From assembly GCA_027314515.1 (NCBI GenBank), contig DAHVAR010000118.1, positions 1 to 43,190 of the forward strand: a stretch of 43,190 bases of DNA, read 5' to 3'. The DNA is from Actinomycetota bacterium (lineage in GTDB: Bacteria; Actinomycetota; Actinomycetes; Streptosporangiales; Streptosporangiaceae). The first letter of the stretch is position 1; each line of letters begins with the position of its first letter. This document shows positions 13,339 to 39,585 of the stretch, in pieces. A program made the position numbers and the translations under genes. The notes below the pieces were generated by a model. That model was not told the DNA's origin. It saw nothing but the letters and a program-made list of their open reading frames with translations, and did no database searches.

Positions 13339-14046
13339 TCAGCTCCGGATCAGCAGGCAGATCTGGCCGCCCATCTCGGCCAGCGGGAACACGGCGACGC
13401 CGGTGTCTGCCGGGCCGCGAAGCCGTTCGCCTGTGCAGATGTCGAAGCGGCTGCCGTGGCCGGGGCAGGTGAGCACGCTGCCGTCCGCCTCTCCCGCCGA
13501 CAGTTGTGCGCCGGCATGCGGGCACCGGTCCGCGATCGCGTACAGCCGGCCGGCCACCCGGTAAACGGCAAGTGGCCCGGCCGGCGTATCCGGGGCCCGG
13601 AACACCAGTCCCAGCCGCCCGGCCGCGTCGGCGGCGTCCAGCAGCGGGAAGGCCCGGCTGGCAGGGGCGCTGCGCGCCAGCAGTTCGCGCAGCCGAAGTG
13701 CCAGTGCTCCGCGGTTGCTGACGACGTCGCAGCCGGCCCGCTGGGCAGCCAGCCACAAGTCCCGGTCCGGCGTCTGGAGGTATCCGGCCAGCAGCGCGGT
13801 CGGCCAGCGGGCGCGCCAGGCCCGGATCTGCTCCAGGGCGCCGGGGACGTGCAGGTCGATGACGGCCACGGCGAGCTCGGCGGCCTCCTGGGCCGGCTCG
13901 GAATCGGCGATCGCGAGCTTGTGGTCCGCCGCCAGCTGCTGTAGCCGGCGGCGGACCTGCAGGTCCTCGGTGAGCAGCAGGCAGACCGGCGCGGTCGGCC
14001 TCCGGCCCTGGTTGTCATCGTGCGGCCCGTCCGCTGCGTTCACCAC
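13339..14046 (-). CDS. Receiver-like domain fused to a Rieske [2Fe-2S] domain
   Basis: The start chosen is GTG 14046, six bases after GAGG and 8 bp after the DsrE2-like gene; the open frame upstream overlaps that gene and is not plausible. Of 235 residues, ~20-125 look like a response-regulator receiver: VCLLLTEDLQVRRRLQQL, then AVIDLHVPGALEQI with Asp64 at the phosphoacceptor position. The conserved lysine after strand 5 appears absent. Residues ~130-235 are a Rieske domain with all four ligands, C175-P-H177 and C194-PG-H197. It is the last gene of the sulfur operon. A soluble electron carrier with a degenerate sensor domain is the simplest reading; its partner is unknown. Confidence 0.75.
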   Translation of the reverse strand: MVNAADGPHDDNQGRRPTAPVCLLLTEDLQVRRRLQQLAADHKLAIADSEPAQEAAELAVAVIDLHVPGALEQIRAWRARWPTALLAGYLQTPDRDLWLAAQRAGCDVVSNRGALALRLRELLARSAPASRAFPLLDAADAAGRLGLVFRAPDTPAGPLAVYRVAGRLYAIADRCPHAGAQLSAGEADGSVLTCPGHGSRFDICTGERLRGPADTGVAVFPLAEMGGQICLLIRS

Positions 14047-14054
14047 GCCGGGCC

Positions 14055-14576
14055 TCAGATGAACAACGTGATGTCGGCTTTCGCCGCCATGTCGATGAAG
14101 CTGGCTGCCCCCAGGGACGGCTGCAGCCCGTCGATGAAGTCCTCGGTGCGCAGGCCGTACAAGTCCATCGTCATCTGGCACGGGTGCAGCCGCACGCCAA
14201 CGTCGATGGCCATCTCCAGCAGCTCGGTGGGGGAGGCTACCTTGTACTGCCGGGCCAGCTTCTTGATCATCGTGGTGCCGATGCCGCCCATGTGGATCTG
14301 CCGCCGGCCCAGCTTCAGGTGATCGGTGCCGCCGGGGTCGACCACCGACTCCATCTTCTGCATCCAGTTCTTGCCGGTGAGGCGCTTGTTGTTGCGCTGC
14401 AGCACCCGCAGTCCCCAGAACGTGAAGAACACGTCCACCTCGAGGCCGGAGGCCGCGCCGGTGGTGGCCAGGATCAGGGTCGGCCAGACCCGGTCGAGGT
14501 CGCTGCTCCAGCAGATCATCGCCATCCGCTTGGCCTGCTCAGTGTCGATTGCCTGGTCGCTGTCATTGATGTCCAT
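14055..14576 (-). CDS. DsrE2-like sulfurtransferase protein
   Basis: The 173-aa protein matches the DsrE/F/DrsH-like (DsrE2) family: VDVFFTFWGLRVLQ (residues 48-61) and the reactive-cysteine segment VRLHPCQMTMDLYGL, with Cys133 as the expected persulfide carrier. Many DsrE2 proteins have N-terminal membrane helices; none is visible here. A perfect AAGGAGGT lies 5-6 bases ahead of ATG 14576. Its place at the end of the sHdr operon, together with TusA and another DsrE at the beginning, supports sulfane-sulfur transfer in the cytoplasm. Which DsrE subgroup it belongs to would need a tree. Confidence 0.82.
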   Translation of the reverse strand: MDINDSDQAIDTEQAKRMAMICWSSDLDRVWPTLILATTGAASGLEVDVFFTFWGLRVLQRNNKRLTGKNWMQKMESVVDPGGTDHLKLGRRQIHMGGIGTTMIKKLARQYKVASPTELLEMAIDVGVRLHPCQMTMDLYGLRTEDFIDGLQPSLGAASFIDMAAKADITLFI

Positions 14577-14657
14577 GGCTAACCTCCTTATCGCGGCGCT
14601 GGCATCGCTGCCCCGCGCCGCCTGGTGCGGGCACCCGGGCCGGTCGCCCGGGCCTGA

Positions 14658-14801
14658 TCACAGATGACCGGCCAGCCAGAGCACGCCCTGGACCAGCCGG
14701 AACCCTAGATAGACAACGAGGACGGCACCCGCCGGCAGCGCCATGCGCAGCCATAGCGGGCGGCGTCCGCGACCTGCGGTCCCCTCGGGGAGGCCTTCCA
14801 T
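14658..14801 (-). CDS. Small single-pass membrane peptide in the sulfur operon
   Basis: A 47-codon frame starts at ATG 14801 and ends with TGA at 14658-14660. The N-terminus is polar and basic (MEGLPEGTAGRGRRPLWLR), followed by one hydrophobic helix (MALPAGAVLVVYLGFRLVQG and onward to WLAGHL). GGAAGGTGA lies 8-10 bases upstream, and the frame begins 21 bp after the stop of the lipoyl-carrier gene on the same strand. The positive-inside charge predicts a cytoplasmic N-terminus. It fills what would otherwise be the only gap in this part of the operon. It could anchor a soluble partner to the membrane; I recognise no homologue. Confidence 0.6.
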   Translation of the reverse strand: MEGLPEGTAGRGRRPLWLRMALPAGAVLVVYLGFRLVQGVLWLAGHL

Positions 14802-14822
14802 CAGCGGCTCACCTTCCTGCGG

Positions 14823-15278
14823 TTAGCCGGCGCACCGGTAGCACCGGATGTCTCGTTCCTCGATCAGCGCGCGGTAGTGCGCGAAGGCGGCGGGGCCGTC
14901 CACCAGATGCTCGCGCTCAGCCGCCAGCGCGGACGGCCGCAGGCGGGCGAGCCAGCCGGCGCCGTACGGATCGCGGTTGGCGATGGCGATATCTTCGGCG
15001 AATGCCGCGGCGTTAACCGCCAGCAACTCACCCGTCAGCGGGGTGGGAAACGGCCCGACCCACTTGGCGCTCTCGATGACCGCGAGCGACCGGCCCCTGG
15101 GGTAGCTGCGCCCGGTCTTCTTCCAGCTGATCTGGACCACGCGGCCGCCCATGGTCTGCGCCACGTCGGTCATCCCCAGGACCGCGGTGCCGTCCTCGAG
15201 CCGGACCCAGACATGCAGGTCCACGTCGTAGAGGAGATCATCCGGTACGACGCAGCCGAGCCAGTGCTGGTCGGTCAT
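14823..15278 (-). CDS. GcvH-like lipoyl-carrier protein of sulfur oxidation (LbpA-like), copy 1
   Basis: The 151-aa protein has a GcvH fold: VWVRLEDGTAVLGMTDVAQ (residues 23-41), then VIESAKWVGPFPTPLTGEL with Lys72 in the hairpin turn where GcvH proteins are lipoylated, then NRDPYGAGWLARLRP. The ESAKWVGP context differs from the ESVKAASD form of true glycine-cleavage H proteins and resembles lipoate-binding proteins linked to sHdr. It ends in DIRCYRCAG, with a C-terminal cysteine pair. ATG 15278 is preceded by GGGTGAGG and lies 3 bp after the stop of its paralogue. It probably carries sulfur-oxidation intermediates on lipoate. Confidence 0.85.
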   Translation of the reverse strand: MTDQHWLGCVVPDDLLYDVDLHVWVRLEDGTAVLGMTDVAQTMGGRVVQISWKKTGRSYPRGRSLAVIESAKWVGPFPTPLTGELLAVNAAAFAEDIAIANRDPYGAGWLARLRPSALAAEREHLVDGPAAFAHYRALIEERDIRCYRCAG

Positions 15279-15281
15279 GCC

Positions 15282-15719
15282 TCACCCGCCGCAGGCGATC
15301 CCTTCCGCGTCCAGGAACTGCCGGTAGGCCTGCACGCCCGCCGGGCCGAAGACGAGGTCGGCCGCGTCGGTCTCCCAGTCATCCGGGCGCAGCCTGGCCA
15401 CCCAGCCCGCACCGTAGGGGTCGGAGTTGATTAGCCCCGGGCTCGTCGCAAGGCTCTGGTTGACCTCGGCGATCTCGCCGCCTACCGGAGCGGGGACAGG
15501 GCCGACCCATTTGCCGCTTTCCACCGTGGCGATGTTGCGGCCCTTCCTGACCGGCTTCCCGGTCGCTTTCGGGGTCACCGCGATGATTGTCTTCGCCATG
15601 TTCTGCGCGACGTCGGTCATCCCGACGGTCACGAGGTCGCCGTCGAAGCGCGCCCACACGTGCTTCTCGACGATGTAGTAAAGATCATCCGGCAGTTCGC
15701 AGTTGTTGACAACCGCCAC
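15282..15719 (-). CDS. GcvH-like lipoyl-carrier protein of sulfur oxidation (LbpA-like), copy 2
   Basis: The 145-aa paralogue of the next gene has the same elements: VWARFDGDLVTVGMTDVAQ, TVESGKWVGPVPAPVGGEI with Lys70 as the lipoylation site, and NSDPYGAGWVARLRP. It ends EGIACGG, with one cysteine near the C-terminus. The two copies clearly share an origin but are far from identical, so they are old paralogues with possibly separate partners. The start is GTG 15719 behind AGGAGA. The stop lies 3 bp before copy 1, and the small zinc-finger gene ends 3 bp upstream. The absence of gcvP or gcvT genes supports a role outside glycine cleavage. Confidence 0.85.
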   Translation of the reverse strand: MAVVNNCELPDDLYYIVEKHVWARFDGDLVTVGMTDVAQNMAKTIIAVTPKATGKPVRKGRNIATVESGKWVGPVPAPVGGEIAEVNQSLATSPGLINSDPYGAGWVARLRPDDWETDAADLVFGPAGVQAYRQFLDAEGIACGG

Positions 15720-15722
15720 GGC

Positions 15723-16004
15723 TCAGTCTCCTGTCTCCGCTACCTCGTGCTCAGCAAGCAGGTGGTTGACCAGCATGTCGAGCGCGACGAGCTGGATCTC
15801 GCGCTCGAATTCGGTCAGGAATGCGGGATCGCGCCTGCCCTTGCGGACAACGTGCTGGTAACGCTCTCCGCACTGCGGGCAGGTGATCTCGTAACGGGCA
15901 TTGCCCTGCTCCGCCGTGGCGACGACCGCATCACTGTGCCGCTCGCCCAGATGCGCGTGCAGTGCGCGGGGCTGCGCCGCGAAGTCGCACCATGGGCAGT
16001 TCAT
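15723..16004 (-). CDS. Small zinc-finger protein in the sulfur operon
   Basis: The 93-aa protein carries two likely zinc sites of CxxC...HxxxxH form. The first is C3PWC6 with H18 and H23 (HAHLGERH). The second is C42PQC45 with H81 and H86 (HLLAEH). A basic-to-acidic helical segment separates the second pair. The ATG overlaps the TGA of the membrane oxidoreductase (ATGA, 16001-16004), so it is firmly within the operon. No enzyme motif is seen. It may bind nucleic acid or act as a scaffold or metallochaperone for the carrier proteins encoded next; that is speculation from position. Confidence 0.7.
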   Translation of the reverse strand: MNCPWCDFAAQPRALHAHLGERHSDAVVATAEQGNARYEITCPQCGERYQHVVRKGRRDPAFLTEFEREIQLVALDMLVNHLLAEHEVAETGD

Positions 16005-18220
16005 GCCGTCACCTGCGCTGCCAGCGGCTCGGCTGGGTGTGCCATCGCTTCGGCCACCAGCAGGGTGATGTCGCGTACTGCCAGCGTGCCGTCGTGCCCG
16101 GTGGTCTTGGCCGCGTCGGAGTACATGGTCACGTCCTTCGGGCAGGCGACGATGAACTGGCTGACGTTGAGCGCGGCGGCCTCGGCGATCCGGTTCTCGC
16201 TGGGACGCTCGGCCAGGTAGCTGTCGTCCATCCAGATCCGCCCGCCGCCGGCTCCGCAGCAGAACGTGTTGACGCCGTTGCGCGGCATCTCCACGAGTTC
16301 GCAGCCAAGTGCGCGCAGGACCCGCCGGGGCGCCTCGGTGACGCCGTTGTAGCGGGCGAGGTAGCAGGGGTCATGGTAGGTGACCTTGTAGCCGAGCGGC
16401 CGGACCTGGATAGCTCCGGTCTCCAGCAGGTGGGCGAGAAGTTCGGTGTAGTGCCACACCTTGTAGCTGGCACCGCGCTCCGGGTACTCGTTGCGCAGGG
16501 TGTTCAGCGAGTGCGGATCGGTGGTGAAGATCTCCTCGAACTGCGCCTCGCGCAATGTCTCGATATTGTGCTCGGCGAGCATCTCGAACAGGCCTTCTTC
16601 GCCGACCCGGCGCACGTCGTTCCCGGCATTGCGCTCGCCGTCGTAGAGCAGGCCGAAGTCGACGCCGCCGGCGGTGAGGATCCTGGCGAGGGCGCGGGAG
16701 TTCTCCTGCAGCCGGTCGTCGAAACTGGCGAAATCACCGACGAACCACAGGTACTTCACCGGCTCCTTGCGGGCATCGGGGATCTGGAAATCCAGTCCCT
16801 TGACCCAGCGAGCCCGCATCCTGGCCGATTTCCCGAACGAGTTGCCCTGGGTTGCGAGATTTTGCAGCGCTGTCTGCAGCGTCGGATCCATCGTGCCCTC
16901 GTCGACCAGGCTGCGGCGCAGTTGCACGATGGTGGGCACGTGCTCGATGCCGACCGGGCACACCTCTACGCAGTGCATGCAGGTGGTGCACGACCACAGG
17001 GTCCGCTCGGCCACCACGTCCCCGGCGATCCGGGTGCCCGCGCCGACAGCGAGCGGCCCGGTGCGGTCAGGGCGCTGCTCGCGGTCCAGGAGGGTATGGC
17101 CGCCGGAGCTGGCATCGGCCCATTGGCGCAGGTCCAGGATCAGGTCACGGGGGGACAGCGGAGCGCCGGCGGTACGGGCCGGGCAGACTTCGTGACAGCG
17201 GCCGCACTTGGTGCAGGCGTCGAGGTCGAGCAGTTCCTTCCAGGTGAAGTCGCTCAGCTGCTGGTAGCCGGCCTGACCCTGCGCGGGCACCGGGGCCGGC
17301 AGGTTCGGCGTGGTGCCCCGGTCGGTGGCCAGCAGGTTGGCCATGTCCAGCAGCATGTGCATGGCCTTGGAGAACGGGATGTAGGCGACGAAGGTCAGCG
17401 CCAGTGACGCGTGGATCCACCACATGATCGTGTGCGCGGTGACCGCGCCGGCCGGGCTCATGCCGAAGGCGGCGAACATCTCCGCGACCAGCCGGCCGAA
17501 GGGGGTGAACAGGGTGAACCATGGCATCCCCTGGGTGAGGATGCGCAGGCCGGTCAGCAGGTAGGCGGTGACCAGGATGGCCAGCAGCAGCCCGAGGAAC
17601 ACCCAGTCGCCCGCCACCAGCCGCTTGCGCGAGTAGCCGGCCTCCGGCTGGTGCGCCCGCGCGTACCCCAGCCGCCACGGCCGGCGCACCCCCCGCCGCA
17701 GCGCCATGTAGATCAGCGAGAGCAGGAACGCGAATCCCATCGTGTCCACGGTGAAGGTGTAGACGAGGAAGAACGGACCGTGGAAGAAGCTGTCCTCGTG
17801 GCCGACGATCAGGCGGGAAAGGTTACGGACGATGTCGACGTCGATGGTCAGGATCACGGTGGCGGCGAAGGCGACGATGAATCCCCAGAAGATGAAGAAG
17901 TGCGCGATGCCGAGCGCCCGGTCCCCCCGCCCGATCGTCTTGTTGGAGGCGAGCGTGCCGATCGTGGCCGTGTCCGGCCGGCCGATTCCGCCGGCCGAGC
18001 CGGCCCGGGACCGGCCGGCGAGCGCCTGCCTGACGGTCGGCCAGCGCCCGGCTGGCCGGCCCCGGCGGTACTTCCGGATCCGCAGCCACATCCCCCAGCA
18101 GAAGACCGCGATCGACACCGTCGCCGCGGCGTAGAAGATGGCCTTGCCGACGGGCCCGATGTCCTGGAAGACGACTCGGGTGACGGGAATCCCGGCAGCC
18201 ACCAGCTTGTCCGCCAGCAT
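16001..18220 (-). CDS. Membrane-bound ETF:quinone oxidoreductase of the HdrD/NarI-fusion type
   Basis: In 739 residues, the N-terminal ~300 hold about six membrane helices with histidines placed for haem b (such as HFFIFWGF and HTIMWWIHASLALTFVAY), like NarI-type cytochromes. Two [4Fe-4S] ferredoxin motifs follow: C336-C339-C342-C346 and C411-C414-C417-C421. The C-terminal half is an HdrD-like CCG region with DPCYLARYNG and CCGAGGGR; the first CCG module lacks its usual cysteines (NAGNDVRRVGEEGLF). Such proteins pass electrons between ETF and menaquinone. The ATG overlaps the TGA of etfA (TGATG), supporting an EtfAB partner. It probably delivers sulfur-derived electrons to the quinone pool. 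Confidence 0.87.
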   Translation of the reverse strand: MLADKLVAAGIPVTRVVFQDIGPVGKAIFYAAATVSIAVFCWGMWLRIRKYRRGRPAGRWPTVRQALAGRSRAGSAGGIGRPDTATIGTLASNKTIGRGDRALGIAHFFIFWGFIVAFAATVILTIDVDIVRNLSRLIVGHEDSFFHGPFFLVYTFTVDTMGFAFLLSLIYMALRRGVRRPWRLGYARAHQPEAGYSRKRLVAGDWVFLGLLLAILVTAYLLTGLRILTQGMPWFTLFTPFGRLVAEMFAAFGMSPAGAVTAHTIMWWIHASLALTFVAYIPFSKAMHMLLDMANLLATDRGTTPNLPAPVPAQGQAGYQQLSDFTWKELLDLDACTKCGRCHEVCPARTAGAPLSPRDLILDLRQWADASSGGHTLLDREQRPDRTGPLAVGAGTRIAGDVVAERTLWSCTTCMHCVEVCPVGIEHVPTIVQLRRSLVDEGTMDPTLQTALQNLATQGNSFGKSARMRARWVKGLDFQIPDARKEPVKYLWFVGDFASFDDRLQENSRALARILTAGGVDFGLLYDGERNAGNDVRRVGEEGLFEMLAEHNIETLREAQFEEIFTTDPHSLNTLRNEYPERGASYKVWHYTELLAHLLETGAIQVRPLGYKVTYHDPCYLARYNGVTEAPRRVLRALGCELVEMPRNGVNTFCCGAGGGRIWMDDSYLAERPSENRIAEAAALNVSQFIVACPKDVTMYSDAAKTTGHDGTLAVRDITLLVAEAMAHPAEPLAAQVTA

Positions 18221-19185
18221 CAGTGCTTAACCCTCTCCGCCAGCGCCGGGATCAGGTCGAACAGGTCCACCGTCGTCCCGTAATGCGCCACGTCGAAGAT
18301 CGGCGCGCCCGCGTCGGTGTTGCAGGCGATGATCAGCTCGGCGCTGCGCATCCCTTCCAGGTGCTCGGGCGCCCCGGAGATGCCGAACATCAGGTACGCC
18401 TTCGGCTTCACCTTCAGGCCCGACTTGCCAACCTGGCGCGACTTGGGCAGCCAGCCCGCATCGACCACCGGCCGGGAGGCCGACAACGGCACCCCGAGCG
18501 CGTCGGCGAGTTCCTGCACCACCTCGAGGTTGTCCCGGCCATCGATGCCACGGCCGACCGAGACGAGGACGTCGGCCGCGGTGATGTCCACGTCGCCTTC
18601 CTGCGGCTCAAGCACCTGCTGCAGGCTCATCCGCAGCGCCTCCAGCCCGGCCGGCGCGGCGAACTCCACGACGGCGCAAGAGCCGTCGCCCTGGCCGGCA
18701 GCGGCGGGGAACGCGCCGCCGACCACGGTGGCGATGCCGCGCTCGCCGCCGAGTTCCACCTCGGCCAGCACCTTGCCGCCGAGGATCTGGGCGGTGGCCA
18801 CCACCGCGGCCGGCTCAGCCGTCAGGCTGGTGACGTAGGCAGCGAGCGGCGCCTGCCAGCGGACCGACAGCGCCGCGCCCAGGTCCAGCCCGACGGTGGC
18901 GTTGGACATGAGGATGAGCCGGGGGTTGCGGTCGGCGAGCACGGCCATCAGCGCCTGCTCGTAGGCTTCCGGCAGGTACTCAGACAGGGCCGGATGGTCG
19001 ACCGACACCACTACGTCCGCGCCGCCCAGCTGAGCAGCGAGGTCACGCGGGCCGAACAGCGCGACCTCTGCCTGGCAGCCGAGAGCGGCGGCCAGTTCCC
19101 TGGCCTTGCCCAGCAGCTCGTAGCTGCCTTCGGAGACCTGCTTGCCGGTGTGCTCGGCGAGCACCATTATGTTCCCGCTCACCAC
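18220..19185 (-). CDS. etfA: Electron transfer flavoprotein alpha subunit
   Basis: The 321-aa protein has the ETF alpha N-terminal domain (IMVLAEHTGKQVSEGSYELLGKAREL) and the C-terminal FAD-binding domain with VSVGRGIDGRDNLEVVQELA, SRPVVDAGWLPKSRQVGKSG and YLMFGISGAPEHLEGM. The segment IIACNTDAGAPIFDVAHYG closes the FAD site. With EtfB it forms the heterodimer that passes electrons to the membrane oxidoreductase encoded next. GTG 19185 starts 1 bp after the etfB stop; a second in-frame GTG follows directly. No acyl-CoA dehydrogenase gene lies nearby, so sHdr or the lipoyl carriers are the likely electron donors (inference). Confidence 0.95.
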   Translation of the reverse strand: MVSGNIMVLAEHTGKQVSEGSYELLGKARELAAALGCQAEVALFGPRDLAAQLGGADVVVSVDHPALSEYLPEAYEQALMAVLADRNPRLILMSNATVGLDLGAALSVRWQAPLAAYVTSLTAEPAAVVATAQILGGKVLAEVELGGERGIATVVGGAFPAAAGQGDGSCAVVEFAAPAGLEALRMSLQQVLEPQEGDVDITAADVLVSVGRGIDGRDNLEVVQELADALGVPLSASRPVVDAGWLPKSRQVGKSGLKVKPKAYLMFGISGAPEHLEGMRSAELIIACNTDAGAPIFDVAHYGTTVDLFDLIPALAERVKH

Positions 19186-19186
19186 G

Positions 19187-19963: not shown

Positions 19964-19991
19964 CTCACCTCTCCGGAACTGGCCCCGGCCG

Positions 19992-23731: not shown

Positions 23732-24786
23732 CAGATCCTCTTTCCGTCAGCCCCGGCGAAAGCCGCGGCGAGCTGCCGTCCGGGTTCCCCGAACCGCGCG
23801 AGCACGCCGGGCACCTCGGGCAATGGCACCCCGGTGACGGCGCGCTCGGCGGCCGCGGTGTCGCCGTTCAGTCCGGGTGCGGTCAGCCATGCCCGATGCA
23901 CCGTGCCTGCTACCACGCTGGCCACCACCTTGGCCGGGCCGGCCTGCGCGGCGACCGTCCACACCCCGGCGCGCACTTTCACCTGGCGGGCGGCCTGCCT
24001 GCTGGCACGCCGCGGCCCATCCAGCCAGTCGGCGCTGGTGAATCGGTCATCGAGGTCGGCCAGGCACAGTTCCTCGGTTGCGGTGAGCTTGCCGGGGGCC
24101 GCATCCAGCCCGAGTGCCTGCGCGTAGGCACGGGTCATGGCTGCCTGGAAGGCGGCCGCATCCACCGGAGTAGGCGCCACGTAGCGGCGCATCAGCCGGA
24201 GCGTCTCGGCCCGCTGCGCCGGGTCGGCCACCGCCAGCACCCTGGTGGCGCGCTCGTGATCGAACCGCTCGATCAGGTTGCCGCAGACGACCACGGCGTC
24301 TTCGATCTGTCCGGCGCCATGCCCGCAGATCTTGCGGTCACCGGCACAGATCTCGCCGTCCTCGTCCAGCCTGGCGGCCACGCCCGCCGACCGGAACGCA
24401 GCCACCGCCGGCGCCAGCAACAGCCGCAGTGCGTCCAGCCGGGCGACGGGAACGGCCGCGGCCGGCAGGCAGATCTGGAAGAACAGTTGCCCGTCGTCCA
24501 GGTACACCGGGCCGCCGCCTACCATCCGCCGGTACACCGGCAGCCCTTCCGCCAGGCAGTAGTCGCGGTCAACCTCGGCCAGGTCACGGTGATAGCCGAC
24601 GCAGACATACGGCGCGGACGGGCGGGCGAAGGACAGCGTGGCAGGCTGGCCGCCGCTGACCCCGTAGCTGACGGCATGCCAGAGCGTCTGCGAGCGCAGC
24701 GGCGTGACCTGCCCGAAGTCGATCACCCGCAGCAGGCCGACGCTGGCCGGCGTGGCAGGCGCCGCGGCGCCCCGGCCGCTAGTCAC
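23731..24786 (-). CDS. Second lipoate ligase / octanoyltransferase-like protein
   Basis: The start is placed at GTG 24786, which overlaps the upstream stop by 8 bp; a later in-frame GTG (MIDFGQVTP) is the alternative. The 351-aa protein has the ligase fold motifs LSFARPSAPYVCVGYHRDLAEV, YRRMVGGGPVYLDDGQLFFQ and GDRKICGHGAGQIEDAVVVCG, the last with the conserved lysine. A long C-terminal part follows (LGLDAAPGKLTATEELCLAD). The RMVGGGPVYLD motif suggests an acyl-adenylate or octanoyl-transfer activity. It is distinct from the ligase at 21.1-22.2 kb, so the operon has two acyl-loading enzymes for three carriers. Confidence 0.78.
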   Translation of the reverse strand: MTSGRGAAAPATPASVGLLRVIDFGQVTPLRSQTLWHAVSYGVSGGQPATLSFARPSAPYVCVGYHRDLAEVDRDYCLAEGLPVYRRMVGGGPVYLDDGQLFFQICLPAAAVPVARLDALRLLLAPAVAAFRSAGVAARLDEDGEICAGDRKICGHGAGQIEDAVVVCGNLIERFDHERATRVLAVADPAQRAETLRLMRRYVAPTPVDAAAFQAAMTRAYAQALGLDAAPGKLTATEELCLADLDDRFTSADWLDGPRRASRQAARQVKVRAGVWTVAAQAGPAKVVASVVAGTVHRAWLTAPGLNGDTAAAERAVTGVPLPEVPGVLARFGEPGRQLAAAFAGADGKRI

Positions 24787-26089
24787 CGGCGGGGGCAAGG
24801 CCCATGGCCTGGTCGATGAGCTCGATGATGTCGCGGACGAGCACGTGGTCGTTGCCGGTCGACTTGGCCGCGTCCTCGAACCGCGACACCTCGTAGGGGC
24901 AGCAAACCACGAGCATGTCCGCGCCGGTCTGGCTGGCCTCGCGAACCCGCCGCTCGGATAGCCGCTCGGAAGTCTTGTCGCGGGTGAACCCGTCCAGCCA
25001 CATGCCGCCGCCACCACCGCCGCAGCAGTAGGCGTTCACGCCGCAGCGGCCCATCTCCACCAGTTCCACGCCCGGGATGGCCCTGATCAGGGTGCGCGGC
25101 GCGTCGTACTCGCCGTTATGCCGGCCCAGGTAGCACGGGTCGTGGAAGGTCACCTTCAGATCGAGCGGCCGCACCCAGCTGATCTGGTCCGCCAGCGGCG
25201 CAAGCAACTGGGTGTAGTGCAGGGCCTCGAACGTGTGGCCGCGCTTGGGGTACTCCTTCACCAGCGCATTGAAAGCATGCGGATCCGGGGTGACGATGCG
25301 GGCGAACTCATACCTGGCCAGGGTGGCCGTCACGTCCTCGACGAGCGCGTCGAACAGCCCCTTCTCGCCCGCGAGCCGCTGGGAGTCGCCAAGGGTCTTC
25401 TCCTCGTGGCCGAGGATTGCCCAGTCGATGCCAAGCGCGGTGGCGACCCTGGCGAAGGCCCTGGCCGCGTCCTGCCCGCGCGGATGGTAGCTCCAGTAGT
25501 CCTCGACATAGAACAGCACGTCGACGGGCGACGGGTCGGTCGGCAGGATGCGCACGGGTACCCCGGCGGAACGAGTCCACTGGGCGCGCCGGCGCGGGTT
25601 TTCCCCCAGCGCGTTGCCGTAGCGGAAGGTCTTCTCAAACACGTCCTGCAGTTCGCCGGGCACCTCGCGGCCGCCGGTCAGCGCCGCCTCCCTGACGGTC
25701 GGCATGATCTGGATCATGTCGACCTCCTTGGGGCAGACCCGCAGGCAGTTGCCGCAGGTGGTGCAGAGCCACAGGTCCGCGTCGGCCAGCAGGTCGGTGC
25801 CCGTCTGGACCTTGCGGTGGAGTTTGCGCGGGGCGTAGTCACCGACCACGTCCACCGGGCAGACCGGGACGCACTTACCGCAGCCGTAGCACCACTCAAG
25901 CGACTCGGCCCCGGGCAGCGCGCTGATCGCCTCGAAGGCGTCCGGCCCGGTGCGCGTCAGCACGCGGGGCTCGAACATCCGGTTCCACATGGCCGGCAGC
26001 TCGACCTCGCGGCCGGAGATGGTGGAGGCGACAGTTGCCGTCTGCTTCTCGACGGCCTGCGGCGGTACCTTCCGCCCTCCGATCGGCAT
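24779..26089 (-). CDS. shdrB3: Fused sHdrC2-B2 subunit (sHdrB3 type)
   Basis: ATG 26089 (MPIGGRK) was chosen because it lies 4 bp after the preceding stop with GAGG in range. The 436-aa protein joins an HdrC-like ferredoxin domain to an HdrB-like CCG domain. The ferredoxin clusters are C67-C70-C73-C77 and C109-C112-C115-C119. The C-terminal region has FHDPCYLGRHNGEYDAPR and AYCCGGGGGGMW with a later VVCCPYE. The first CCG module has no matching cysteines (EEKTLGDSQRLAGEKGLF). Such fusions replace separate C2 and B2 subunits in the sHdr variant linked to EtfAB. Its layout also resembles the soluble half of the membrane oxidoreductase at 16.0-18.2 kb. Confidence 0.85.
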   Translation of the reverse strand: MPIGGRKVPPQAVEKQTATVASTISGREVELPAMWNRMFEPRVLTRTGPDAFEAISALPGAESLEWCYGCGKCVPVCPVDVVGDYAPRKLHRKVQTGTDLLADADLWLCTTCGNCLRVCPKEVDMIQIMPTVREAALTGGREVPGELQDVFEKTFRYGNALGENPRRRAQWTRSAGVPVRILPTDPSPVDVLFYVEDYWSYHPRGQDAARAFARVATALGIDWAILGHEEKTLGDSQRLAGEKGLFDALVEDVTATLARYEFARIVTPDPHAFNALVKEYPKRGHTFEALHYTQLLAPLADQISWVRPLDLKVTFHDPCYLGRHNGEYDAPRTLIRAIPGVELVEMGRCGVNAYCCGGGGGGMWLDGFTRDKTSERLSERRVREASQTGADMLVVCCPYEVSRFEDAAKSTGNDHVLVRDIIELIDQAMGLAPAGD

Positions 26090-26093
26090 CTGT

Positions 26094-26825
26094 TCAGACC
26101 TCCAGGTGGTAGACGCCAAGCAGGCGGCGGATCAGGGCGGGCAGCGGCGGCACCAGCCGGGTGAATTCCTGCGTCATGCGCATCCGCAGCACGGTGGACA
26201 TGTACACGCCGTACACCGCTGCGAGAAACACATCGGTGCCGAACAGCCCCGGCCCGGCGCCGGTGAAGCCGGCCGCCTTGCCGGTCTCGTCGACGAACGC
26301 GGTGGCCCGCCCGACCGTCAGGTACATGCCACCGCCGCTGGCGCCCTCGGTCAGGTCGATGTCGTCGGTGGTGACCAGGCGCAACGCCCCGGTCTCGGTG
26401 GACGGGTCCCACATCCACCGGGTCCACAGCCAGTACTGGCCGGGCTCGGTGAAGTGCAGCAGTTCGCTGGCCAGCTCGTAGCTGCTGCCCGGCAGGCCGG
26501 CAGCGAACTCGCCGAACCGGTCGAAGCGCCCGATCACCGGCTCGCCGGGATCGAGCAGGCCGGCGATGGCAGCGCCGAGTCGCTCCGGGCCGGCTTGCGC
26601 GAGTATCTCGTCAGCGCGGCGGCGGGTGGCGAACACCCATCGCAGCACCTGGCGCAGGGCCGCGCTGTCCGGCCGCTGCGCGCCCGGCGTCAGCAGTTCC
26701 CGCAACGCCAGCGACTTGCGGTCCAGGTCGCTGGCTATCGCGGCGAGATCGGCAGCGCTGACCCGGCTCGCGATCTCGCGCTGGAATTCCTGAGCGCTAA
26801 GAGTGTCGACGACGGCCCCTGTCAT
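26094..26825 (-). CDS. shdrH: sHdr-associated conserved protein (sHdrH / 'hyp')
   Basis: The 243-aa protein starts at ATG 26825, 14 bp after the shdrA stop. It lies exactly where sHdr operons carry the conserved protein of unknown function between shdrA and the C2/B2 genes. The sequence is mostly helical in its first 120 residues (FQREIASRVSAADLAAIASD). A mixed region follows with YWLWTRWMWDPSTETGALRL and GMYLTVGRATAFVDETG, then a basic tail. There are no cysteines or recognisable cofactor motifs, so a structural role in the complex is more likely than catalysis. The assignment rests mainly on synteny. Confidence 0.7.
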   Translation of the reverse strand: MTGAVVDTLSAQEFQREIASRVSAADLAAIASDLDRKSLALRELLTPGAQRPDSAALRQVLRWVFATRRRADEILAQAGPERLGAAIAGLLDPGEPVIGRFDRFGEFAAGLPGSSYELASELLHFTEPGQYWLWTRWMWDPSTETGALRLVTTDDIDLTEGASGGGMYLTVGRATAFVDETGKAAGFTGAGPGLFGTDVFLAAVYGVYMSTVLRMRMTQEFTRLVPPLPALIRRLLGVYHLEV

Positions 26826-26839
26826 TGGTGCCAACCCGG

Positions 26840-27904
26840 TCAGTCCGCGCTCACGGCGGCGCGGCGCCGCAGGAAGCCGACCGCCTTCATCGCCGCGCCC
26901 GCCGCCGAGGACACGGTGTCCTCCAGGTCGGCCGGGCCGAGTGCCGCCCCGCACGCGAAGATGCCCGCACGGCTGGTCGATACCGTGTCGAGCGGGCCGC
27001 CCACGGCATGGATGAAGCCGTACTTGTTCTGGGCAACGCCGAGCACCCTGGCCATCTGCTTGGTGCCGGCCGACGGCTCCATCCCGACCGACAGCACAAC
27101 CAGGTCCATCTCGAGTTCCATCGGGCGGCCCATGGTCGTGTCCTCACCGCGCACCAGCAGGCGGTCGCCCTTGGCGATGACCTCGGTGATCATTCCCTTG
27201 ACGTACTGGACGTGGTGCTTCTCCTGGGCGGGCCAGTAGATCTCGTTCTCCCAGTAGCCGTACATCCGCATGTCGATGTAGAAGATGTAGACCTTGGAAC
27301 CGGGGAGCAGCTGACGGATCTCGATGGCCTCCTTGGAGGCGACTCCGCAGCATACCTTGGAGCAGTACTCGTTCCCGATGTGGCGATCCCGGCTGCCGAC
27401 GCACTGGATGAAGCAGACCCGCTCCGGCGGCTGGCCGTTCGACGGGCGCACCACCTGGTGCTGCGACAGCATGGACTCCAGATCCGGCAAAGTGACGACG
27501 TCGGGGTACTCGTAGTACCCGTAAAGCTGCGTTTCCCGGCCGGGGTCGAAGTGGGTGAAGCCGGTCGCGAGCACTATCGCGCCGCACTCCACCAGTTGGT
27601 CGCCGGCCGGGCCGCGCACGGTGAGCGTGTACGCGCCCGGCTCGCCGGACAGCGCCGTGACCACCGAGCCGAGCCGCACGTCGGCGTCCGGATGGCTGGT
27701 CACGGCCTCGATCATCCGCTCGATCTGGGGGCGGGCCGGCTCGCCGTGCGGGGTCAGGCCTGCGTAGTTCTCCGCGATCGGAGTACCGCCCAGGAAGTCG
27801 CGCTGCTCGATGAGCACGACCTTGCCGCCTATCTCCGTGATGGCGTCGGCCGCGCGGAGGCCGCCGGGTCCGCCGCCGATGACGGCTACCGTGTCTGCGG
27901 ACAT
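26840..27904 (-). CDS. shdrA: sHdrA, FAD and Fe-S subunit of the sulfur-oxidising heterodisulfide reductase-like complex
   Basis: The 354-aa flavoprotein begins TVAVIGGGPGGLRAADAITE, a Rossmann FAD-binding motif, and ends with GIFACGAALGPADLEDTVSS, the second FAD-contact motif. C168, C181, C185 and C186 in CVGSRDRHIGNEYCSKVCCG form the HdrA-type iron-sulfur site. The length is that of the short sHdrA of sulfur oxidisers rather than the longer methanogen HdrA. GAGGGG precedes ATG 27904. sHdrA is thought to be the flavin hub through which electrons from bound sulfur pass between the B/C subunits. The flanking shdrB1 and shdrH genes confirm the context. Confidence 0.93.
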   Translation of the reverse strand: MSADTVAVIGGGPGGLRAADAITEIGGKVVLIEQRDFLGGTPIAENYAGLTPHGEPARPQIERMIEAVTSHPDADVRLGSVVTALSGEPGAYTLTVRGPAGDQLVECGAIVLATGFTHFDPGRETQLYGYYEYPDVVTLPDLESMLSQHQVVRPSNGQPPERVCFIQCVGSRDRHIGNEYCSKVCCGVASKEAIEIRQLLPGSKVYIFYIDMRMYGYWENEIYWPAQEKHHVQYVKGMITEVIAKGDRLLVRGEDTTMGRPMELEMDLVVLSVGMEPSAGTKQMARVLGVAQNKYGFIHAVGGPLDTVSTSRAGIFACGAALGPADLEDTVSSAAGAAMKAVGFLRRRAAVSAD

Positions 27905-27949
27905 TCGTTCCCCTCAAATATCGTGAGCTGCTGGTTCGTCCTGGACGGC

Positions 27950-29140
27950 TCAGCTGTCGACGTCATCCCAGTCGAGGAATTGCTTCTCGCCTCTTTCAAG
28001 GCGCTTGAGGTCGGCCTGGAATTCGGCCCATGCCTGCTCCCAGTCGATGCCCATCTTTTCCAGCACCGGCCGGTAATCCGCTGAGTGCCAGTGCAGCTGG
28101 CAGACCTTGTACGGGTGGGCGCCCATGGCCAGCGCGGCGAACTGGGCTTCGCTCATCACGCCGACCCCGACGTTACGGTCGTGCGCACGGGCAGCGAACT
28201 GGCTCTTGTCGAGGGTGGTGACGCAGCCGGTGTCGTGCGTGAGGACGACGTCCGGGTCTGCCTCCTCCTTCATTACCTCGATCTTCCGCAGGGTGGCGAA
28301 TGACCTGGTGAAGTCGCGCTGGACCAGGATGTGCCGGAAGCCGAAGCCGCAGCAGTCGAACCAGGTGGAGTAGTTGCGCACGTCCGCGCCGAGGGCCTGG
28401 GCCAGCCCGGTCACCACGGCGGTGCGCTGGCCGCCGTAGACGTCGGGGTCGTAGATGGCGTCGCCCTCGACCAGCTTGTAGTAGTGGCACGCGGGGTGGA
28501 CGGTGACCTTCACCTGGGATACGTCGCGCACCTGCCGGGCCGCGATCTCGTGCCGCAGGGCGTAGAACCACTCGGAGTAGTGGACGATCTCCTCCGGCAG
28601 TACCAGCTGCTTGCCGAGCTTGGCCATGATCTCCCGTACCTCCGCCCGCAGCTCGGGATGGCGGATCAGTTCCTCCCGCACCTCCTTGTAGTGCCCGTAG
28701 GAGGTGCCGCAGTGGATGAGCGGGAAGAAGCCGGTCTCATTGGCTGCCGCGAAGTTCCGCACCGCCACCGCGGCCTGGGCGGCGGTGTTGGAGGTGGCGC
28801 TGGCGTAGTAGTTCCAGGCGGTGCAGCTGGTCTGGTCCTTCGGGTCGTGGTAGTCGTAGCCGAGCTTGCGCATTACCCAGAAGATCGAGGTGGAGTAGCC
28901 GGGAATGTGGCCGCACTGGCCGCACGACTTGTGGTGCCACAGGTGCGCCTTCTGGATCCGCTTGTCCCGGCCGTACTTGGTGGGCACCGTGACCACGTCG
29001 CGGTCGATCTTCTGCACCACCAGCTCGCCGCGGGCCTCCAGGTCCAGCAGCTCGGCTCGCGGGTCCGCAAGGGCCCGGCGATCCTCGCCGCGGTCGAAAT
29101 GCTCCTTCTTGCGCTTGAGCGCCTCGATAGGGATGGTCAC
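27950..29140 (-). CDS. shdrB1: sHdrB1, CCG-domain catalytic subunit
   Basis: The start is GTG 29140, overlapping the shdrC1 stop as GTGA; the open frame upstream lies on top of shdrC1 and is not used. The 396-aa protein carries two cysteine-rich CCG-type modules. The first has C73GQC76, C106 and IHC144GTSYGHYK. The second has HPACHYYK, FDCCGFGFR and THDTGC. In HdrB these modules hold the non-cubane [4Fe-4S] clusters that split or form disulfides; in sHdr they are believed to act on protein-bound sulfur. The many His and Trp residues near the clusters (HLWHHKSC, VHYSEWFY) are seen in the sequence but unassigned. Confidence 0.92.
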   Translation of the reverse strand: MTIPIEALKRKKEHFDRGEDRRALADPRAELLDLEARGELVVQKIDRDVVTVPTKYGRDKRIQKAHLWHHKSCGQCGHIPGYSTSIFWVMRKLGYDYHDPKDQTSCTAWNYYASATSNTAAQAAVAVRNFAAANETGFFPLIHCGTSYGHYKEVREELIRHPELRAEVREIMAKLGKQLVLPEEIVHYSEWFYALRHEIAARQVRDVSQVKVTVHPACHYYKLVEGDAIYDPDVYGGQRTAVVTGLAQALGADVRNYSTWFDCCGFGFRHILVQRDFTRSFATLRKIEVMKEEADPDVVLTHDTGCVTTLDKSQFAARAHDRNVGVGVMSEAQFAALAMGAHPYKVCQLHWHSADYRPVLEKMGIDWEQAWAEFQADLKRLERGEKQFLDWDDVDS

Positions 29141-29865
29141 AGCTCGATCCCTTCGTCTTCCAGTCGTTCCTCCATCAGTTCCTGGAGGATGGCATGCAGG
29201 CTGGCGTCGACTTCGGCGATCATGTCGAGCGAGCCGGTGTGCAGCCAGATCAGGTAGAGCTCGATGAGAGTCCGGTCGCTGACGGCCCAGCCGGTGGTGG
29301 TGGTGTGCAGCGTCTCGGGGGGCAGCGCCCGCCGCCAGAGGTCCAGGTTGGCGGATACGTCGCCGGTTTCCGGGCCCCAGTCGGGGAACGCGTCTGGCTG
29401 GAGCATGTCCGGCGACACCTGGGTTCCGGTGGACATGATCTTGTAGATGATCCGGGAGTAGCCCGCGAGTGCTTCCCTCGCGGAGGCCAGGCCGTTGCTG
29501 ACGGCCACCTCCCGCATGATCGTGATGATGCCGCCGGGGTTGTTGCCGCGCGGGCAGCGCAGGCAGGAGAAGCACTGGGAGCATTCCCAGATGTCCTCCT
29601 GCATCTGCTGGTAGATGAGCTCGACGTCCTCCCTGGCCGCCGCCTGGGCGATCCGGCGCGGGCTGAAGTCGTAGAACCGGGCCGACGGGCAGGCGGCCAC
29701 GCAGATGCCGCACTCGTAACAGCCGTAGAGGTAGTCGCCGAACCGCAGGTCACTCTTGACCAGGTCGAACAGCCTGGCCTTCTCCTCATACGGCACATCG
29801 GCATACCCGGCTACCTGCGGAGCCTTGTAGTGCGCGTCCGGCTTGGCGGCGTCGGTAGTGGTCAT
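29137..29865 (-). CDS. shdrC1: sHdrC1, ferredoxin-like subunit
   Basis: The 242-aa protein has a first cluster motif CYECGICVAACP (C49, C52, C55, C59). The second, CSQCFSCLRCP, places C95, C98, C101 and C104 two residues apart, one shorter than the usual CxxCxxCxxxCP. After these comes a helical C-terminal domain (TLIELYLIWLHTGSLDMIAE) typical of sHdrC1. It would relay electrons between HdrB1 and HdrA. ATG 29865 lies 9 bp after the dsrE stop, and the end overlaps shdrB1 by 4 bp. The gene order dsrE-C1-B1-A-H matches known sHdr operons. Confidence 0.92.
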   Translation of the reverse strand: MTTTDAAKPDAHYKAPQVAGYADVPYEEKARLFDLVKSDLRFGDYLYGCYECGICVAACPSARFYDFSPRRIAQAAAREDVELIYQQMQEDIWECSQCFSCLRCPRGNNPGGIITIMREVAVSNGLASAREALAGYSRIIYKIMSTGTQVSPDMLQPDAFPDWGPETGDVSANLDLWRRALPPETLHTTTTGWAVSDRTLIELYLIWLHTGSLDMIAEVDASLHAILQELMEERLEDEGIEL

Positions 29866-29874
29866 CGCGGGCGC

Positions 29875-30258
29875 CTAGAAGCTGATGACTGCGTCGGCGT
29901 TGATGGCCAGGTCGTTGAAGGCGGCTCCGCCGATCATCTCGACCCCGTCGATAAGCTCGTCGATCCGCAGATCATTCAGGTCGAGCGACGGCTGGCAGAT
30001 GAGCAGCCGCACCCCCAGGCTGGTCGCCTGGTCGATGAAGTAGCGCAGCGGCTGCCCCACCTCTCCCTTCGGGCCGATCTTGTCCACGATGTCCTTGCGC
30101 AGCAGCGTCGGCCCGTACATCGTGAAGTAGATCATGACCTCGCACTCCATCGCCGCCGCCGAGGCCGCGAGGAAGAACGGGGTAGCCGACCTGCCAGGGT
30201 CGCTGATCCCGTGGGTGTGCACGTAGAGGATCTTGGAATCGAAGTCTCCGGACCACAT
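29875..30258 (-). CDS. DsrE-family sulfurtransferase (DsrE3-like)
   Basis: The 127-aa protein has the DsrE fold pattern: KILYVHTHGISDPGRSATPF, then a long helix, CEVMIYFTMYGPTLLRK, and the reactive site GVRLLICQPSLDLNDL with Cys88 as the likely persulfide carrier. The last strand is AINADAVISF. In sHdr operons a dsrE gene next to tusA is standard; the pair is thought to relay sulfane sulfur toward the oxidising complex. It lies 8 bp downstream of tusA and 9 bp upstream of shdrC1. It is clearly different from the larger DsrE2-like protein at the operon's end. Confidence 0.9.
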   Translation of the reverse strand: MWSGDFDSKILYVHTHGISDPGRSATPFFLAASAAAMECEVMIYFTMYGPTLLRKDIVDKIGPKGEVGQPLRYFIDQATSLGVRLLICQPSLDLNDLRIDELIDGVEMIGGAAFNDLAINADAVISF

Positions 30259-30266
30259 CGTCCCGC

Positions 30267-30515
30267 CTACCTCGTCCGCCGGATCAGGACGTGGAACACG
30301 TCGCCTTCCCTGGCGATGCCGAGCAGTTCGTTGCCGGTGCGGCCGGTCCAGGCCTTCATGTCCGGCTCGACTCCGGGGTCGGTAGCCAGCAGTTCGAGAA
30401 CCTGACCCGCCTCGATCTTCTTGATCGCCTGCGAAGTCTTGACCACCGGCAACGGGCAGGCCATCCCGGTACAGTCGAGTACCTGGTCAGCCACTGGAAC
30501 GGGCGCGTCGGACAC
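30267..30515 (-). CDS. tusA: TusA sulfur-carrier protein
   Basis: The 82-aa protein has DQVLDCTGMACPLPVVKTSQ: Cys20 in the CPxP motif is the persulfide-carrying residue of TusA, and the C-terminal part (GDVFHVLIRRTR) completes the two-layer fold. The start is GTG 30515, with AAGGGGAT about 7 bases ahead; the frame upstream overlaps the promoter. TusA takes persulfide from rhodanese-type or other donors and hands it to DsrE or sHdr partners in the cytoplasm. As the first gene of the 17-kb operon it lies just below the best promoter candidate in this region. Confidence 0.95.
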   Translation of the reverse strand: MSDAPVPVADQVLDCTGMACPLPVVKTSQAIKKIEAGQVLELLATDPGVEPDMKAWTGRTGNELLGIAREGDVFHVLIRRTR

Positions 30516-31360: not shown

Positions 31361-31453
31361 TGCGGTGCGTGTCCTTTCGGTAGAAATGCCTGATCAAGTC
31401 TAGCAACGGGCGGCAGCGAGCAATTGCCGGCCGATGGCCGGCGCGGCCGGGCG

Positions 31454-33466: not shown

Positions 33467-33519
33467 ATCGCCGGGCAGGGGTGCGAGGTCAGCCGCCGGC
33501 TGGACGGCTGGCGGCGCCG

Positions 33520-37056: not shown

Positions 37057-37078
37057 CTGCGCTTCCTCGCCTGCCGGA

Positions 37079-38130: not shown

Positions 38131-39585
<1,455 letters not shown>

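What the first reader, a model, noticed from the sequence alone, without database searches (positions are those of the whole stretch)
13339..30515. A 21-gene actinobacterial sHdr-lipoate sulfur-oxidation operon with EtfAB and a quinone oxidoreductase
All genes lie on one strand with overlaps or gaps of 1-45 bp. The set unites sulfur delivery (TusA, two DsrE types), sHdr C1-B1-A-H and a fused C2B2, three lipoyl carriers, two acyl-loading enzymes, two radical SAM lipoyl synthase proteins, EtfAB and a membrane oxidoreductase. From established knowledge, sHdr/LbpA oxidises protein-bound sulfur in the cytoplasm; the fused B3 with EtfAB fits, as I recall, the second published sHdr type. The order suggests a complete route from persulfide to menaquinone. 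The accessory genes at its end (zinc finger, membrane peptide, DsrE2, receiver-Rieske) are not part of the standard set as I know it.
Basis: partly seen in the sequence, partly recalled or inferred. Interest (0 to 1): 0.85.

Follow-up and report, generated by a model that had tools for sequence, protein, structure and literature searches.

The report
Actinobacterial sulfur-oxidation operon (type II sHdr)
This is a full-looking gene set for oxidising sulfur inside the cell, of a kind already described from related bacteria, with conserved helper genes and an odd lipoate-carrier protein that I did not find described.

Summary
Twenty-one minus-strand genes run from tusA (start 30515) to a receiver-Rieske gene (end 13339), nearly all with overlaps or gaps under 46 bp (two wider gaps: 52 and 81 bp). 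The operon meets the published definition of a type II sHdr system (shdrC1B1AHB3 plus etfAB in one cluster). Cao et al. 2018 reported this arrangement (Group III) in Actinobacteria and Firmicutes, so it is a new member of a known kind. One reading fails: the "accessory" genes are conserved. The zinc-site gene lies between emo and lbpA in 28 of 36 testable loci. A cbbL match occurs in 15 of 20 sHdr-positive genomes tested, two of them cultured Amycolatopsis. Most novel: the GcvH-like protein of the lipoate cassette lacks both cysteines that mark sulfur-carrying LbpA. Such proteins accompany lipS1/lipS2 in 35 of 36 loci and group together in the tree (support 98 with, 83 without the cysteine regions), which suggests a dedicated lipoyl-assembly carrier. 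Caveats: the contig may be mis-binned; there is no expression or enzyme evidence.

The parts
31454..31807 (-). arsR2, ArsR-type regulator (one Cys)
   Evidence: NCBIfam NF033788 84.5 bits, over cut-off 55; same place in 7 named loci
31037..31360 (-). arsR1, ArsR-type regulator (two Cys)
   Evidence: NCBIfam NF033788 80.1 bits, over cut-off 55; same place in 7 named loci
30637..30996 (+). divergent 119-aa CxxC (zinc-ribbon-like) protein between arsR1 and tusA
   Evidence: tblastn matches in 13 of 76 named loci; no NCBIfam match
30267..30515 (-). tusA
   Evidence: Pfam TusA 9.4e-22; CPxP motif in 55 of 60 aligned rows
29875..30258 (-). dsrE (DsrE-type sulfurtransferase)
   Evidence: Pfam PF13686/PF02635; Cys88 in 63 of 63 rows
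29137..29865 (-). shdrC1
   Evidence: Fer4 dicluster; 8 near-invariant Cys
27950..29140 (-). shdrB1
   Evidence: CCG domain; HdrB PDB 8rvu 2.5e-14
26840..27904 (-). shdrA
   Evidence: best PDB match 6tjr, 2.5e-82; 4 Cys in 69 of 69 rows
26094..26825 (-). shdrH
   Evidence: position and conservation only; no Pfam or NCBIfam match
24779..26089 (-). shdrB3 (fused C2B2)
   Evidence: Fer4 + CCG; query (part of it)
23731..24726 (-). sLpl1, lipoate-protein ligase family
   Evidence: Pfam PF21948 1.9e-21
23207..23731 (-). cysteine-less GcvH-like protein of the lipoate cassette
   Evidence: Pfam GCV_H 2.8e-19; no Cys in the sequence; groups with 35 others
22218..23210 (-). lipS1
   Evidence: NF053742 LipS1 220 bits, below cut-off 230
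21079..22221 (-). sLpl2, lipoate-protein ligase family
   Evidence: Pfam PF21948 1e-34
19992..21089 (-). lipS2
   Evidence: NF053743 LipS2 192.7 bits, below cut-off 270
19187..19963 (-). etfB
   Evidence: Pfam ETF 1.3e-23
18220..19185 (-). etfA
   Evidence: Pfam ETF and ETF_alpha
16001..18220 (-). emo, Fe-S/CCG reductase with hydrophobic N-terminal part, probable Etf:quinone oxidoreductase
   Evidence: Pfam CCG and Fer4; PDB 9ojn 6e-85; function inferred
15723..16004 (-). znf, conserved two-site C/H protein of 93 aa
   Evidence: 28 of 36 testable loci; model pLDDT 87.9
15282..15719 (-). lbpA2, with N- and C-terminal Cys
   Evidence: Pfam GCV_H 2.6e-34
14823..15278 (-). lbpA3, with N- and C-terminal Cys
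   Evidence: Pfam GCV_H 1.6e-25
14658..14801 (-). 47-aa single-helix membrane peptide
   Evidence: similar 49-aa peptide at the same place in G036
14055..14576 (-). dsrE2
   Evidence: Pfam PF13686 1.2e-41; Cys133 in 34 of 34 rows
13339..14043 (-). receiver-Rieske fusion protein
   Evidence: Pfam Rieske 1e-14; fold matches to receivers and Rieske ferredoxins
38155..39585 (+). cbbL (RuBisCO large subunit), neighbouring CBB cluster
   Evidence: NF003252 770 bits over cut-off 438

Best explanation
A type II sHdr-LbpA operon for cytoplasmic oxidation of sulfane sulfur. DsrE, DsrE2 and TusA pass persulfide sulfur to the lipoyl/cysteine carriers LbpA2 and LbpA3. The sHdr C1-B1-A-H-B3 complex oxidises it, most likely to sulfite. 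Electrons leave through EtfAB to the membrane Fe-S/CCG reductase (Emo) and the quinone pool. The sLpl-LipS1-LipS2 cassette makes the lipoyl groups, and the neighbouring Calvin-cycle genes suggest that the energy supports CO2 fixation. Shown here: gene content, conserved active residues, conserved order. Inferred: direction, product, electron acceptor, autotrophy.
For: Published gene definition met. HdrA is nearest to PDB 6tjr, an entry I recall as the Hyphomicrobium sHdrA. Conserved Cys in DsrE (63/63), DsrE2 (34/34), HdrA (4 Cys, 69/69), B3 and Emo, and the lipoyl Lys in 35/35, 42/42 and 29/29 rows. LbpA2 and LbpA3 carry the two cysteines reported as typical of sHdr LbpA. Order conserved in named loci incl. 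Aciditerrimonas, both Amycolatopsis and Paraconexibacter, and in Ferrithrix apart from the lip cassette. No SoxB match and no AprA over cut-off in the assigned genome. cbbL match in 15 of 20 chosen sHdr-positive genomes.
Against: No expression, growth or enzyme data. The sulfite-oxidising step was not found: two PF00174 proteins are not diagnostic. SQR, Sat, SoeABC and rDsr were not searched. Five of 20 sHdr-positive genomes gave no cbbL match, among them that of L026, whose sHdr proteins are the nearest to the window's. LipS1 and LipS2 score below the curated NCBIfam cut-offs. The contig's binning is doubtful.
Confidence: 0.82

Rival explanations
1. The operon oxidises sulfane sulfur as a side activity of a heterotroph (for example from volatile organic sulfur), for detoxification or a supplementary electron supply, and does not support autotrophic growth.
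For: Five of 20 sHdr-positive genomes, those of Paraconexibacter and L026 among them, gave no cbbL match. Hyphomicrobium, an obligate chemoorganoheterotroph, uses thiosulfate as a supplemental donor (abstract passages).
Against: A Calvin cluster lies 7.6 kb away, and cbbL is on the sHdr contig in three further genomes.
Confidence: 0.3
2. The complex runs in the reductive direction, as a disulfide or sulfur reductase drawing electrons from quinol through Emo and EtfAB.
For: HdrB1's nearest PDB chains are methanogen-type heterodisulfide reductases.
Against: DsrE/TusA genes, LbpA with the sHdr-typical cysteines and the published type II definition drawn from sulfur oxidisers; driving it from menaquinol would be uphill by recalled redox chemistry.
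Confidence: 0.06
3. The cysteine-less GcvH-like protein is just a third working LbpA or a stray glycine-cleavage H protein, not an assembly carrier.
For: It keeps the lipoyl lysine (35 of 35 rows) and matches GCV_H; GcvH also lacks the cysteines.
Against: It sits with lipS1/lipS2 in 35 of 36 loci and groups together across phyla; I saw no gcvP- or gcvT-like protein in the window (by eye; no dedicated search).
Confidence: 0.45

Closest known systems
Type II sHdr system (shdrC1B1AHB3-etfAB; PMC11582611), which I take to be Group III of Cao et al. 2018 (PMC6067878)
   Same: Fused B3, EtfAB, HdrH and two or three lbpA in one cluster in Actinobacteria or Firmicutes.
   Different: Here the LipS1/S2-Lpl cassette with a cysteine-less GcvH-like protein lies inside the operon; znf, membrane peptide, dsrE2, receiver-Rieske, an ArsR pair and a divergent CxxC protein are added. 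I did not see the papers' figures or supplements, so some of these may be drawn there as unnamed genes.
Sulfobacillus Hdr cluster II (PMC4378227, passages)
   Same: Hdr genes with etfAB and a long membrane HdrC-like protein with CCG domains, dsrE, tusA, gcvH-like and lpl genes.
   Different: Sulfobacillus itself was not examined. In the six Bacillota MAG loci here no lipS1 or lipS2 matched, and the four that reach 1.5 kb past emo had no znf match. The paper gives two CCG domains in the membrane protein; Pfam finds one here.
Type I sHdr-LbpA of Hyphomicrobium denitrificans
   Same: C1-B1-A-H core, LbpA, sLpl and LipS1/S2, ArsR-type regulators.
   Different: C2 and B2 separate, etfAB not part of the definition; its regulators use a Cys50/Cys116 pair, whereas arsR2 here has a single Cys.
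Lipoyl relay of Bacillus subtilis (LipM, GcvH, LipL)
   Same: A GcvH-like protein receives the acyl group first and a second enzyme moves it on (passages).
   Different: Only a resemblance proposed here; no activity tested, and the synthase would be LipS1/S2, not LipA.

Membership tests
Type II sHdr system | shdrC1, B1, A, H and B3 in one syntenic cluster | tested here: met
   (H by position and conservation only)
Type II sHdr system | C2 and B2 fused as B3 | tested here: met
   436-aa protein with Fer4 and CCG domains
Type II sHdr system | etfAB in the same cluster | tested here: met
   etfB 19187-19963, etfA 18220-19185
Type II sHdr system | oxidises sulfur in the cell | not testable with these tools
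   no physiology available
sHdr-type LbpA (lbpA2, lbpA3) | lipoyl lysine plus conserved N- and C-terminal cysteines absent from GcvH | tested here: met
sHdr-type LbpA (23207-23731 protein) | the same two cysteines | tested here: not met
   the protein holds no Cys; 36 of 37 proteins within 500 bp of the lip cassette lack both
LipS1/LipS2 lipoyl synthase | score over the curated NCBIfam cut-off | tested here: not met
   LipS1 220.0 against 230, LipS2 192.7 against 270, each the best-scoring family; so LipS1-like and LipS2-like in the strict sense
LipS1/LipS2 lipoyl synthase | radical SAM CX3CX2C cysteines | tested here: met
   C58/C62/C65 in 34 of 34 and C63/C67/C70 in 29 of 29 rows
sHdrR/SqrR-type sulfane-sulfur repressor: arsR2 | two conserved cysteines | tested here: not met
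   one Cys in the protein; pair described
sHdrR/SqrR-type sulfane-sulfur repressor: arsR1 | cysteines matching Cys50 and Cys116 | tested here: inconclusive
   two Cys, at 17 and 92; no sHdrR sequence was aligned
Phosphorylatable receiver domain (receiver-Rieske protein) | conserved phospho-acceptor Asp and Lys | tested here: inconclusive
   read by eye in the 7-row alignment: Asp in 4 of 7 rows (the window among them), no Lys at the expected place; column choice is mine. The fold is a receiver
Rieske ferredoxin | CxH and CxxH cluster ligands | tested here: met
   C173/H175 and C192/H195 invariant in 7 rows

The most novel reading that the evidence does not exclude
Type II sHdr bacteria make the lipoyl cofactor of sulfur oxidation by a dedicated relay. 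sLpl2 loads octanoate onto a cysteine-less GcvH-like carrier, LipS1/S2 insert sulfur there, and sLpl1 moves the finished lipoyl group to the cysteine-bearing sulfur carriers LbpA2 and LbpA3. The cysteine-less carrier would be a separate, ancient protein family that goes with LipS1/S2 in loci bearing at least six phylum labels.
Probability: 0.35. Interest if true: 0.65.

Novelty: new member of a known kind. Interest (0 to 1): 0.5.

Why it matters
It shows a known sulfur-oxidation system in further soil-type actinobacteria, with cultured carriers (two Amycolatopsis species) that also hold RuBisCO genes. That makes sulfur-driven autotrophy in a genus known (recalled) for antibiotics directly testable. 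The split between cysteine-bearing and cysteine-less GcvH-like proteins gives a handle on an open question that Cao et al. state for LbpA1/LbpA2, namely why such operons hold more than one carrier. The conserved zinc-site protein and the receiver-Rieske protein are candidate new components.

Tried and rejected
Horizontal transfer of the operon into this genus: considered, because none of the 8 same-genus genomes has a close B3 orthologue (they are 72-98% complete) and the sHdr tree joins the window to L026 while SecA joins the genome to G006. Not concluded, since mis-binning explains the same facts: G006 matches own contig C103 at 94% over 14.4 kb, but none of its listed matches to the 25.9 kb of window flanks is comparable (the first list is cut, and only the best 30 candidates per genome were scored). 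Tetranucleotide profiles do not decide.

A 220-bp 'repeat' at 8694-8915 with matches in most of the 10 genomes is a cold-shock-protein-like gene, read by eye on the minus strand. My notebook entry calling it a repeat, and an entry giving 14 loci for the divergent ORF, are superseded: distinct named loci number 13.

Plasmid origin: B3 matches on plasmids are 39% paralogues covering under 80%. Rfam: no match at gathering scores. No tRNA in the window. PDB matches for the zinc-site protein: none at E 0.001 or better, best VIA Z 4.4; this does not show a new fold. The ORF at 14563-14754 (GC3 0.55) was rejected as the membrane peptide in favour of 14658-14801. sLpl1's conserved Cys62 was considered as a LipL-like catalytic residue and dropped, because the window's sLpl2 has a Cys at what looks like the same place.
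Full report
WHAT IS THERE. The window is a whole contig (C191, 43,190 bp) of a 5.86-Mb, 280-contig genome, 97.9% complete and 3.55% contaminated. Order: tusA, dsrE, shdrC1, B1, A, H, B3, sLpl1, GcvH-like, lipS1, sLpl2, lipS2, etfB, etfA, emo, znf, lbpA2, lbpA3, 47-aa membrane peptide, dsrE2, receiver-Rieske. HdrA matches PDB 6tjr at 2.5e-82, an entry I recall as the Hyphomicrobium sHdrA; Emo matches 9ojn, 'Iron-sulfur-binding reductase', at 6e-85. That Emo passes electrons from EtfAB to quinone is inferred.

MEMBERSHIP. PMC11582611 (passages) defines type II sHdr as shdrC1B1AHB3 and etfAB in one syntenic cluster, with B3 the fusion of C2 and B2. That is met. Cao et al. 2018 (PMC6067878; section 5 and passages) described Group III, in Actinobacteria and Firmicutes, with EtfBA and two or three LbpA; that it equals type II is my reading. 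The Sulfobacillus paper (PMC4378227, passages) described Hdr cluster II with etfAB and a membrane HdrC-like protein in 2014. So the system is known; this is a new member. The LipS1 and LipS2 calls rest on best-scoring NCBIfam models that stay below their cut-offs.

DISTRIBUTION. Close B3 orthologues (84-87%) occur in 2 of the 59 relatives searched besides the own genome; the other listed matches are at 47% identity or less, mostly longer paralogues. Across the phylum, 4 of 396 genomes match at E 1e-85 or better, the own one included. A scan of one genome per species, by two short motifs of six aligned B3 proteins, gave 76 named loci from 191 candidate stretches, so it is not exhaustive. They include Amycolatopsis acididurans, A. 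alkalitolerans, Ferrithrix thermotolerans, Aciditerrimonas ferrireducens, Paraconexibacter antarcticus and MAGs titled Actinobacteria, Chloroflexi, Rokubacteria, Bacillota, Bacteroidota, Planctomycetota, KSB1 and others. In a quick tree of C1+B1+A+B3 (67 rows with at least three of the four; the rest dropped) Actinomycetota form one side of a branch (support 100) and the window's nearest row is L026 (92% identity, support 99).

THE ACCESSORY GENES ARE MOSTLY STANDARD. tblastn of window proteins against these loci shows the order conserved; the lip cassette lies between B3 and etfB in many actinobacterial loci but not in Ferrithrix, G136 and some others. Among 36 loci where emo is followed by an lbpA, 28 have the zinc-site gene between them; 8 do not: L036, L041, L054, L062, L064, L071, L072, L080. 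Counted otherwise, of loci reaching 1.5 kb past emo, 8 of 10 actinobacterial and 10 of 24 other ones have it; it is absent from the Bacillota, KSB1, Planctomycetota and Bacteroidota loci among these. Seven Cys/His positions are invariant in 30 sequences (C2, C5, H17, H22, C41, C44, H80) and H85 nearly so: two potential zinc sites (zinc itself not shown). The model is confident (pLDDT 87.9) but has no PDB match at E 0.001 or better. In the five actinobacterial loci that extend at least 2.5 kb past the lbpA genes, all five have dsrE2 and four have the Rieske gene. The Rieske protein folds as a receiver (residues about 17-128, VIA Z up to 14.3) joined to a Rieske ferredoxin (127-232, Z up to 16.6). 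The receiver looks degenerate: Asp at the presumed phospho-site in 4 of 7 rows, no Lys at the presumed place (by eye). The membrane peptide was seen only here and in G036.

CATALYTIC RESIDUES. Conserved through the aligned loci: DsrE C88 63/63, DsrE2 C133 34/34, HdrA four Cys 69/69, HdrB1 eight Cys, B3 and Emo twelve Cys each, and lipoyl Lys 35/35, 42/42 and 29/29 in the three GcvH-like proteins. No TusA Cys column passed the automatic filter; the CPxP motif is in 55 of 60 TusA rows.

TWO KINDS OF GcvH-LIKE PROTEIN. Cao et al. report that sHdr LbpA proteins, some archaeal ones excepted, carry an N-terminal and a C-terminal Cys that GcvH lacks. The window's lbpA2 and lbpA3 have both; the protein at 23207-23731 has no Cys. 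Over 117 GcvH-like proteins from the loci and the window, 37 lie within 500 bp of lipS1, lipS2 or sLpl2, and 36 of these lack both Cys (the exception, L078, is an lbpA3 beside the cassette). Of the other 80, 67 have both, 2 have only the N-terminal one, 8 have the N-terminal one with the other end unseen, 1 has the C-terminal one with the N end unseen, and 2 lack the N-terminal one with the C end unseen (L042 and L063, at contig ends). Of 36 named loci with lipS1 or lipS2, 35 have the cysteine-less protein; L089, where the cassette lies at the edge of the locus, is the exception. The 36 complete cysteine-less proteins form one side of a branch in a quick tree that includes E. coli GcvH: support 98 on all columns, 83 and thus not firm when the regions with the cysteines are left out. 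sLpl1 also occurs in 18 loci without lipS1/lipS2 in view, whereas sLpl2 occurs in one such (L050, a 32% hit); assignment is by best tblastn hit only, and flanks are limited. I read this as a synthesis module (sLpl2, LipS1, LipS2, carrier) and a delivery enzyme (sLpl1). The Bacillus relay (LipM to GcvH, LipL onward) is described in PMC10332631 (passages). In the passages of that paper and of Cao et al. that I read I saw no cysteine-less cassette protein; figures and supplements were not seen, and no literature search was aimed at it alone.

REGULATION. Two ArsR genes precede the operon, in this order and orientation also in seven named loci: L025-L030 and L038. arsR2 has one Cys and arsR1 two (17 and 92); Cys17 is shared by 25 of 29 arsR2 rows and 10 of 13 arsR1 rows, window included. 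sHdrR and SqrR use a pair, Cys50 and Cys116; I had no sHdrR sequence to align, so only arsR2 can be said to lack a pair. The 2025 paper notes that many ArsR regulators near shdr genes lack the pair and may act otherwise. A divergent 119-aa CxxC protein lies between arsR1 and tusA; it has matches in 13 named loci.

CARBON FIXATION. Window 32145-41044 holds an aldolase, RPE, PRK, a two-component-like pair, a LysR gene, cbbL, cbbS and cbbX (named by eye; only cbbL and PRK were checked by a family search). A cbbL match is found in 15 of 20 sHdr-positive genomes that I chose; the five without are those of L025, L026, L035, L044 and L060. It shares a contig with sHdr in the two Amycolatopsis (about 29 and 34 kb apart) and in G060 (about 13 kb), judged by contig numbers and lengths; in the single-contig genome G136 the two are about 0.85 Mb apart, and in the remaining 11 they are on different contigs. 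RuBisCO also occurs without sHdr: G003 and G008 of the assigned genus match cbbL DNA.

REST OF THE PATHWAY. In the assigned genome no AprA over cut-off and no SoxB were found; two PF00174 proteins are not diagnostic of sulfite oxidase. Other steps were not searched. These absences count only if the contig belongs to this genome.

BINNING DOUBT. G006, same genus and 99% identical in SecA, matches another own contig at 94% over 14.4 kb, but its listed matches to the window flanks are short or weak (lists limited as said under Tried and rejected). The flanks match G036, another genus, in blocks of 68-81%. Either this is a large accessory region or the contig is mis-binned.

VERDICT. Real, well-formed and mostly known. 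The points I did not find described are the conserved partner genes, the cysteine-less carrier group and the cultured Amycolatopsis carriers with RuBisCO genes. A search for three of the cultured species names listed three papers; by titles and abstract starts none concerns sulfur oxidation. Literature searches covered open-licence PMC papers only.

Noticed in passing
window 1-43190 (G000:C191): The contig may be mis-binned: its flanks resemble G036 (another genus) and not G006, a near-identical relative of the assigned genome by SecA.
   Followed up: partly
window 32145-41044: Calvin-cycle cluster with aldolase, RPE, PRK, regulators, LysR-type gene, cbbL, cbbS and cbbX beside the operon.
   Followed up: partly
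window 30637-30996 (+): Divergent 119-aa protein with CxxC motifs between arsR1 and tusA, with matches in 13 of 76 named loci; no NCBIfam match.
   Followed up: partly
window 31037-31807 (-): Tandem ArsR regulators that share a conserved Cys17; arsR2 has no second Cys.
   Followed up: partly
window 532-7666 (-): Cluster of glycosyltransferase, flippase-like and deacetylase-like genes (named by eye), also found in G036 at 68-69% DNA identity.
   Followed up: no
L032, L035, L036, L041, L098: MAGs titled Acidimicrobiaceae from fen and bog; four of the five (L041 was not in the tree) fall among the window's close relatives in the sHdr tree, away from Ferrithrix and Aciditerrimonas: misnaming or transfer.
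   Followed up: no
L055 400-4700: hdrA-like (29-37%) and hdrB3-like (51%) matches lie just upstream of the type II operon.
   Followed up: no
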